The position numbers and the translations under genes are program-made. This document shows, piece by piece, positions 20,337 to 22,168 of a DNA stretch of 64,000 nt. Source of the DNA: Chryseobacterium piscicola (GTDB taxonomy: Bacteria > Bacteroidota > Bacteroidia > Flavobacteriales > Weeksellaceae); assembly GCF_900156685.1 (NCBI RefSeq), contig NZ_FTOJ01000001.1:1-64000 (forward strand), written 5' to 3'. The notes under the pieces are model-generated. The model searched no databases and was not told where the DNA came from. It saw only the letters and a program-made list of their open reading frames with translations. The number at the start of each line of letters is the position of its first letter. Position 1 is the first letter of the stretch.

Positions 20337-21638
20337 TTATTTCGCAACTCCCATCCCTGCAAAATAGTATTTGAAAGCATTAATTTCCAATGCAAAAACT
20401 CCATCATTACCAATCATATTGATGGGTCTCCAAAAGCTGTTATCGAAGAAACTGATGAGACCCTGATAAGAATTTAAGCCATTGGGCTCTGTCACTCCCC
20501 AAGGGTTTCTAAGGATAATGTAGCTTTTATTATTGATTAATGCCCAACCTAAAATGGTATAAGCATGGTTTGCCACAATATTTGACCCTGAATAGTCTCC
20601 AGATCCATAAGTCCATGCTACCATTGGATGAATGGTTTTCATGCTCATTGAGTTTTCTCTCACGATACCGTATAATTGATCTGCAGTTCTTGTATTTGTG
20701 TAATAATACAAAGGCGTTTTGTTGTTTAATTGAGCAATTGCTTTTACAGGATCTCCGTAAGCTGTTTTTGTAATATCCGGCTTATCGTCATTGGTATTGT
20801 TGATCCATTTTGCAAATGCTTTTTCGTAGACAGCAGGCCAAATCTCTCCCGCATCATTACTTCTGCAGTATATAGGGTTGCTGTAATTGTTAACAATTGT
20901 ATTGTCTGTAACCTCTATCAACTTTGTTGCAGCGTCTTTTCCGCCACCTTTTGTATAAAACTGGACAGCATTTACGCGTTCTGTTTCTCCCACTCCGGTA
21001 GCACGTACTTTATGCTGTATGGCATAAGGTGTTGCCCAAGCCAAGGCTACAATAGCAGAGATAAAATAGCAGTTCCCTACAGCACCCTGAATAGGATCAT
21101 TAAATTCTGTAACATCATTGAAGAAATTCCCTCTGTCGCTCCAAGAGCAGTTAGCTGGCGTCCAGCCCGTATTTGAGTTTTGAGTATTAAAGAGAATTTC
21201 TCTGATAGCCGGAGACAGTATGGTGTTGCTGATTGTGTTATTGAGTTTCGGGACATTCAATACTACTTTTACTTCTCCCCTGTCTAGTCTTGCATTTTTT
21301 ACAGAAATCCCGTCAAGGTCTTTAACACCAAAATTGGAAAGATCTCTCAAGTTTTTGATCGTTGAGAAGTTAATTGTTTCTAACTTATCTACCGCTCTCA
21401 CTTTAATATCTTCCATTTTCATGGTTGTTATAGTGTTGTCTTTTGCAAGCTGTAATCCCGCATAAAGTGGCGAATTAAATTTAATGTCAAAAAGTTCTGC
21501 ATAATTTTTTTCTAAAGCCTGCTCAATAATTTGATAAGATTTTGCGTCTTTCCAATCAAACTTTCTTCCTGTAATTGCTTCTGTTAATGCGTAAGGATTG
21601 ATCACTCCTATTAGCATTTCTTTTGGTGCTTGATCCAT
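20337..21638 (-). CDS. calpain-like (C2) cysteine protease
   Basis: The 433-residue protein has the papain-like triad of calpains in the right order and spacing: Cys190 in QGAVGNCYFISAI, His358 in ANHAYTILGW and Asn378 in LRNPWG. The helper Gln is in the same QGAVGNC stretch (Gln184). The N-terminal 150 residues are a separate region with a beta-rich run near 95-130 and no family I can name. There is no signal peptide, so the protein is cytoplasmic or exported by a non-Sec route. Eukaryotic calpains are calcium-activated; no EF-hand is seen here. A 131-residue gene lies 9 bases upstream in the same unit and may encode a regulator or inhibitor (inference). Confidence 0.87.
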   Translation of the reverse strand: MDQAPKEMLIGVINPYALTEAITGRKFDWKDAKSYQIIEQALEKNYAELFDIKFNSPLYAGLQLAKDNTITTMKMEDIKVRAVDKLETINFSTIKNLRDLSNFGVKDLDGISVKNARLDRGEVKVVLNVPKLNNTISNTILSPAIREILFNTQNSNTGWTPANCSWSDRGNFFNDVTEFNDPIQGAVGNCYFISAIVALAWATPYAIQHKVRATGVGETERVNAVQFYTKGGGKDAATKLIEVTDNTIVNNYSNPIYCRSNDAGEIWPAVYEKAFAKWINNTNDDKPDITKTAYGDPVKAIAQLNNKTPLYYYTNTRTADQLYGIVRENSMSMKTIHPMVAWTYGSGDYSGSNIVANHAYTILGWALINNKSYIILRNPWGVTEPNGLNSYQGLISFFDNSFWRPINMIGNDGVFALEINAFKYYFAGMGVAK

Positions 21639-21652
21639 GATAATAATTGTTT

Positions 21653-22048
21653 TTAATGGTTAATGATTTTATTAATATTGTTTAAAAAATCTGAGTTGTA
21701 GAGAAAAAGAAAGCGATTGAAAAGATCGATACCAGGGAGGTCATCATTTTGAATAAAACTCTTTTCAGAATTTCGTTGGCATAATTCTAAGGTTCGTTGG
21801 CTTCCACCTACTTTCGAAGAAGACTTGGAGAGCATTTTTAGATTGATAAGACCAATGATAAGTTGCTCCAAGATCAAAACATTTATTTTTTTTGATTCCG
21901 AATAAACATTTTTTTCATCAAGATCATACCCCTTGAAAACTTTGAGCTCCGCAATACCATTGCTCGAAAAAACGAGATCGTAACGGTATGCGTATTCTGG
22001 CGGAACACTTCCGTTATTGAATGTGGCAATTACTTTTTTATCTTTCAT
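21653..22048 (-). CDS. small partner protein of the calpain-like protease
   Basis: The start at 22048 (MKDKKVIATFNNGSVPPEY) is the first ATG; an earlier TTG at 22069 is less likely. The 131-residue protein has no signal peptide and no membrane helix. The first 60 residues are beta-rich, with YRYDLVFSSNGIAELKVFKGY. The rest is helical and ends with several Asn and Ile. It ends 14 bases before the protease start on the same strand. Small proteins beside cysteine proteases are often their inhibitors or chaperones, but I see no known inhibitor motif, so that role is a guess. Confidence 0.55.
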   Translation of the reverse strand: MKDKKVIATFNNGSVPPEYAYRYDLVFSSNGIAELKVFKGYDLDEKNVYSESKKINVLILEQLIIGLINLKMLSKSSSKVGGSQRTLELCQRNSEKSFIQNDDLPGIDLFNRFLFLYNSDFLNNINKIINH

Positions 22049-22142
22049 AACTCTAGTTTGATAATCCAAAACTAAAACAATGTAACAAGCATAATATCAG
22101 TATATTCACTATTTTTAACCCGTGAAAAAACGGTAAATAAAA

Positions 22143-22168
22143 AAAGCTGCCACAATTGTGACAGCTTT
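22143..22168 (-). terminator. terminator downstream of the SufT-like gene
   Basis: AAAGCTG and CAGCTTT flank a self-complementary CACAATTGTG core, giving a nearly perfect 26-base hairpin. On the minus strand a T run follows. It lies 30 bases past the stop at 22198. Confidence 0.75.

What the first reader, a model, noticed from the sequence alone, without database searches (positions are those of the whole stretch)
20337..22048. Calpain-like protease with a small co-encoded partner
Bacterial calpains are sparsely studied. Here the full triad (Cys190, His358, Asn378) is present in a protein without signal peptide, and a 131-residue protein lies 14 bases upstream on the same strand. Cysteine proteases in bacteria often come with an inhibitor that protects the producer. 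The N-terminal 150 residues do not match any family I know and may be a targeting or regulatory part.
Basis: partly seen in the sequence, partly recalled or inferred. Interest (0 to 1): 0.6.

Follow-up and report, generated by a model that had tools for sequence, protein, structure and literature searches.

The report
Calpain-like protease with Mago-fold partner
Some Chryseobacterium bacteria carry a two-gene unit in which a calpain-like protein-cutting enzyme is always inherited together with a small protein whose predicted shape resembles Mago nashi, a protein otherwise familiar from eukaryotes; the small protein probably controls the enzyme, but this has not been tested.

Summary
A 433-aa calpain-family (C2) protease with Cys190/His358/Asn378 lies 14 bases behind a 131-aa protein in Chryseobacterium. 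By layout the two genes form one operon: a Bacteroidota-type -7 box sits at a fixed place before the partner in 8 of 8 loci. The pair behaves as one heritable unit: the same 10 of 148 Chryseobacterium genomes carry both genes, adjacent in each; none carries only one; other species have the site empty. Both genes are under purifying selection, the partner evolving about 2.7 times faster. The partner matches no Pfam family, but its AlphaFold model (pLDDT 87.5) has Mago nashi structures as its top seven PDB hits. It is a signal-less offshoot of a wider family of exported Bacteroidota proteins, most of which are not next to proteases. The protease's first 70 residues are a conserved domain shared with a distant relative that has no partner. 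A T6SS effector/immunity reading is disfavoured: the host lacks an intact TssC. Most likely the partner restrains the protease in the cytoplasm (about 50%); binding and inhibition are untested, and my contact model failed.

The parts
20337..21638 (-). calpain-like (C2) cysteine protease, 433 aa
   Evidence: PF00648 E=6e-19; orthologue alignment
21429..21638 (-). conserved N-terminal domain of the protease (residues 1-70), no known family
   Evidence: 46% identical to the distant relative L030; no Pfam match
21174..21428 (-). variable linker region of the protease (residues 71-155)
   Evidence: 17% identical to L030
21069..21071 (-). catalytic Cys190 codon
   Evidence: invariant; aligned to calpain Cys
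20565..20567 (-). catalytic His358 codon
   Evidence: invariant; aligned to calpain His
20505..20507 (-). catalytic Asn378 codon
   Evidence: invariant; aligned to calpain Asn
21653..22048 (-). partner, 131 aa, no signal peptide seen, predicted Mago nashi-like fold
   Evidence: AlphaFold pLDDT 87.5; Foldseek PDB top 7 all Mago; wider family by profile comparison
21980..22021 (-). partner motif FNNGSVPPEYAYRY (residues 10-23)
   Evidence: mostly invariant; shared with the wider family
21800..21811 (-). partner motif VGGS (residues 80-83)
   Evidence: GGS invariant, V nearly so; GG shared with the wider family
22067..22074 (-). Bacteroidota-type -7 promoter box TAGTTTTG, starting 26 bases before the partner ATG
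   Evidence: same box at -25/-26 in 8 of 8 loci
22143..22168 (-). hairpin with T-run ending the upstream DUF59 gene, setting the pair apart as its own transcription unit
   Evidence: read directly from the sequence

Best explanation
The two genes form a self-contained operon encoding a cytoplasmic calpain-like protease and a dedicated small regulator. The regulator is made first, folds as a Mago nashi-like module of beta-sheet plus helices, and most likely binds the protease and holds it inactive until a signal or a target releases it, in the manner of other bacterial protease/inhibitor operons. Shown here: the genes, the operon layout, the strict co-inheritance as a unit, selection on both, a confident partner model and its fold match. 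Inferred: cytoplasmic location, physical binding, inhibition rather than activation or substrate delivery, and the trigger.
For: Co-occurrence 10 of 10 with no singletons among 148 Chryseobacterium genomes. One genomic site, with clean empty sites in 20 non-carriers. The pattern needs at least 4 changes on a flanking-gene tree, both genes together each time. Partner-first operon with its own conserved -7 box. Correlated divergence, partial r=0.88 after controlling for flanking genes, and a faster partner. A distant family member lies 12 bases behind a C10 papain-clan protease. Small co-encoded inhibitors of bacterial cysteine proteases are an established pattern: Spi, staphostatins and Bfi (PMC2873492), Cpi1 (PMC12136450).
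Against: A full-length relative of the protease (G355) has no detectable partner. The partner's wider family is present in 28 of 29 genomes of one Bacteroidota family and mostly sits by housekeeping genes; one C10 neighbour among about 45 members could be chance. No interface was predicted. Linkage and correlated divergence also follow from joint inheritance or transfer alone. No resemblance to a known inhibitor fold was found.
Confidence: 0.5

Rival explanations
1. The partner is an activating or substrate-presenting subunit: the Mago-like module binds a third protein or the protease's N-terminal domain and delivers substrates or switches the enzyme on.
For: Mago is an obligate protein-binding module with Y14 in eukaryotes (established knowledge; title of PMC3885619). 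The linkage evidence fits equally well. A partnerless relative exists, so constant restraint is not obligatory for this protease type.
Against: No third gene is conserved in the unit. A partnerless relative also argues against an obligatory activator.
Confidence: 0.25
2. An antibacterial effector and its immunity protein: the protease is delivered into competitors and the partner protects the producer.
For: Patchy distribution as a unit, a faster-evolving small protein, and the precedent of Cpe1/Cpi1 (PMC12136450).
Against: No signal peptide seen and no delivery domain found. The window's genome has only a 65-residue interrupted TssC remnant; 9 of 10 carriers but also 18 of 19 non-carriers have TssC, so there is no association. 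Fixed chromosomal site; no plasmid or phage copies.
Confidence: 0.12
3. The two proteins share only a promoter and a site; the partner acts elsewhere, as its exported relatives presumably do.
For: Relatives of the partner mostly occur apart from proteases.
Against: No sampled Chryseobacterium genome keeps one gene without the other, despite at least 4 gain or loss events.
Confidence: 0.13

Closest known systems
Bacterial calpain homologues (MEROPS C2; Rawlings 2015, PMC4631099)
   Same: C2 catalytic domain at the C-terminus, full triad, rare and patchy within a genus, chromosomal; acidic side chains of calcium site 1 appear retained (D181, E265) and site 2 incomplete, as reported for some bacterial homologues
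   Different: Conserved 70-residue N-terminal domain without a family, and a linked small partner; the paper's main text does not mention Chryseobacterium or flavobacteria
Mago nashi / MAGOH (PF02792)
   Same: Predicted fold and order of elements (four strands, helix, two strands, two helices); weak sequence hints in the wider family (Pfam E=0.025 for one member; MAGOH ranks 2nd to 13th among about 1,000 shuffles)
   Different: Below every sequence threshold; bacterial; no exon junction complex; paired with a protease
Bacterial cysteine protease/inhibitor operons: SpeB-Spi, staphopain-staphostatin, Bfp-Bfi (PMC2873492)
   Same: Small protein encoded next to a papain-clan protease as one unit
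   Different: Proteases there are exported C10/C47 enzymes; no sequence or fold match to these inhibitors found; inhibition not shown here
Protealysin-emfourin (Serratia; PMC9505478)
   Same: Intracellular protease and small co-encoded protein in one operon
   Different: M4 metalloprotease; no emfourin match found by Pfam or PDB searches
Cpe1-Cpi1 (PMC12136450)
   Same: Papain-like protease with a small cognate protein beside it
   Different: T6SS- and CDI-associated toxins; no delivery link here

Membership tests
Calpain family C2 (PF00648) | catalytic-domain profile match above curated cut-off | tested here: met
   68.7 bits against 23.8
Calpain family C2 (PF00648) | Cys/His/Asn triad with Gln before Cys | tested here: met
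   C190, H358, N378, Q184 invariant
Calpain family C2 (PF00648) | C2-like and penta-EF-hand domains (classical calpains only) | tested here: not met
   no such Pfam domain; so a non-classical member
Calpain family C2 (PF00648) | calcium activation | tested here: inconclusive
   site 1 acidic residues align (D181, E265), site 2 incomplete (hand reading; site list from PMC4631099); activity not testable
Mago nashi (PF02792) | sequence profile match above cut-off | tested here: not met
   no hit for the partner; one distant relative E=0.025, 15 bits against 27
Mago nashi (PF02792) | Mago fold | tested here: met
   on a predicted model only; top 7 PDB hits Mago, probability 0.96-1.00, best TM 0.57/0.53, rmsd 5.3
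Mago nashi (PF02792) | binds Y14 / exon junction complex | not testable with these tools
   needs binding experiments
Small cysteine protease inhibitor (Spi, staphostatin, emfourin types) | co-encoded with its protease | tested here: met
Small cysteine protease inhibitor (Spi, staphostatin, emfourin types) | sequence or fold match to a known inhibitor | tested here: not met
   none in Pfam, PDB sequences or the 50 listed Foldseek hits
Small cysteine protease inhibitor (Spi, staphostatin, emfourin types) | inhibits the protease | not testable with these tools
   fused model pLDDT 42, uninformative
T6SS effector/immunity pair | delivery domain, or a working secretion system in the host | tested here: not met
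   no delivery domain; only a TssC remnant in the window's own genome

The most novel reading that the evidence does not exclude
The partner belongs to a bacterial branch of the Mago nashi fold, and this branch has become a dedicated inhibitor or regulator of a calpain-like protease: a new inhibitor fold class, and a prokaryotic relative of an exon junction complex core protein.
Probability: 0.25. Interest if true: 0.75.

Novelty: new variant of a known kind. Interest (0 to 1): 0.5.

Why it matters
The function of bacterial calpains is unknown: the cyanobacterial survey says so (PMC9380684), and Rawlings notes that possibly no bacterial homologue has been characterised biochemically (PMC4631099). 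A calpain strictly linked to one small protein gives a concrete, cheap test of how a bacterial calpain is controlled. If the Mago-like fold is real, it would also give Mago nashi a possible prokaryotic relative.

Tried and rejected
Emfourin or staphostatin identity for the partner: no profile, PDB-sequence or fold support. Contact prediction: no two-chain tool is on hand, so I used a locus (L014) where the two genes lie in one frame with a very short joint and read the partner's stop as Gly; the model failed (pLDDT 42, pTM 0.30) and says nothing either way. T6SS effector: no association with TssC. Phage or plasmid cargo: no matches. Direct profile comparison of the partner with MAGOH: no support (probability 0.2%); with larger family profiles MAGOH falls in the top 0.2-1.3% of shuffles, suggestive only. 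The viral fold hit A0A8S5VF75 was not followed. A PADLOC hit at E=0.003 looks like chance. Further C10-like hits near family members (E 1e-23 to 1e-33) I read as shared secretion-tail similarity; not checked by Pfam.

Full report
Observation. The partner's start is best taken as the ATG at 22048: the longer TTG frame begins inside the promoter box. The protease is a C2 peptidase by Pfam and by PDB sequence similarity to calpains. The triad and Gln184 are invariant in 11 aligned Chryseobacterium sequences and in a 43%-identical distant relative.

Distribution. Of 148 Chryseobacterium genomes, 10 carry the partner and the same 10 carry the protease, adjacent in each (genus from the record titles). 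In a 395-genome sample of the phylum the protease profile found only one case outside the genus, G355 in another family. There the protease has the same N-terminal domain, and no partner is seen by ORF listing or profile search. Other calpain domains in the phylum sample have unrelated architectures.

Unit and site. In the carriers examined the pair follows the DUF59 gene. In 20 non-carriers DUF59 is followed without the pair, in 19 of them by a sulfurtransferase gene. On a tree of two flanking genes the carriers fall in several clades and at least four changes are needed (only two genes and midpoint rooting, so indicative). No genome with a single gene was seen. A hairpin ends DUF59, and a TAnnTTTG box lies 25-26 bases before the partner ATG in 8 of 8 loci. 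Only about 14 bases separate partner and protease. This is an operon by layout; no transcript was measured.

Selection. Pairwise dN is well below dS for both genes, though many dS values are near saturation. Partner dN is about 2.7 times protease dN. Partner and protease distances correlate at 0.97, and at 0.88 after removing flanking-gene distances. With nine taxa and non-independent pairs this shows shared history and does not by itself show contact.

Protease anatomy. Against G355, identity is 46% for residues 1-70, 17% for 71-155 and 50% for 156-433. So the unknown N-terminal part is a conserved domain plus a linker. By hand reading, acidic residues of calcium site 1 are kept (D181, E265), while site 2 appears to lack at least two ligands; the residue list is from Rawlings.

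Partner. It has no match in Pfam, NCBIfam, PHROGs or PDB sequences. AlphaFold gave pLDDT 87.5 and pTM 0.82. Foldseek against the PDB returned Mago nashi for the first seven hits (E 3.4e-4 to 9.2e-3, probability 0.96-1.00); all other listed hits have probability below 0.4. The best TM is only 0.57/0.53 with rmsd 5.3, so this is a fold-level resemblance, not established homology. Profile comparison links the partner to exported or lipoprotein-like proteins of another Bacteroidota class (probability 95.9% and 96.9% over 81-85 columns; E-values are for a single comparison). One of these gives a sub-threshold Mago_nashi hit and lies 12 bases behind a C10 protease with a type IX secretion tail. Most others adjoin housekeeping genes, so that protease neighbour may be chance.

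Secretion. The window's own genome has only a broken TssC fragment, while 9 of 10 carriers and 18 of 19 non-carriers have TssC. This speaks against a T6SS effector.

Conclusion. The linkage is firm; the fold is likely; the mechanism is inference. I put restraint of the protease by the partner at 0.5, activation or substrate delivery at 0.25, effector/immunity at 0.12, and no functional link at 0.13.

Noticed in passing
L051:1402-3045 (G210): A calpain domain fused behind a segment that looks like DUF4157 (HELTHVVQQ motif, by eye), the kind seen with extracellular contractile injection systems, with a 129-aa protein with a hydrophobic N-terminus directly downstream.
   Followed up: no
L097:170-2695 (G325): Peptidase C10 with a type IX secretion tail followed 12 bases later by a lipoprotein of the partner's wider family.
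   Followed up: partly
G000:C5:168450-168626: The window's genome holds only a 65-residue interrupted TssC fragment where nearly all relatives have an intact T6SS TssC; possible loss of the T6SS.
   Followed up: no
L082-L130: An unnamed exported protein family (motif GPVSPEYQYSY ... GG) present in 28 of 29 genomes of one Bacteroidota family, often in tandem copies; one member has a sub-threshold DUF6438 hit.
   Followed up: partly
L013:9324-10726: Two neighbouring ORFs with identical C-terminal halves, apparently a recent tandem duplication.
   Followed up: no
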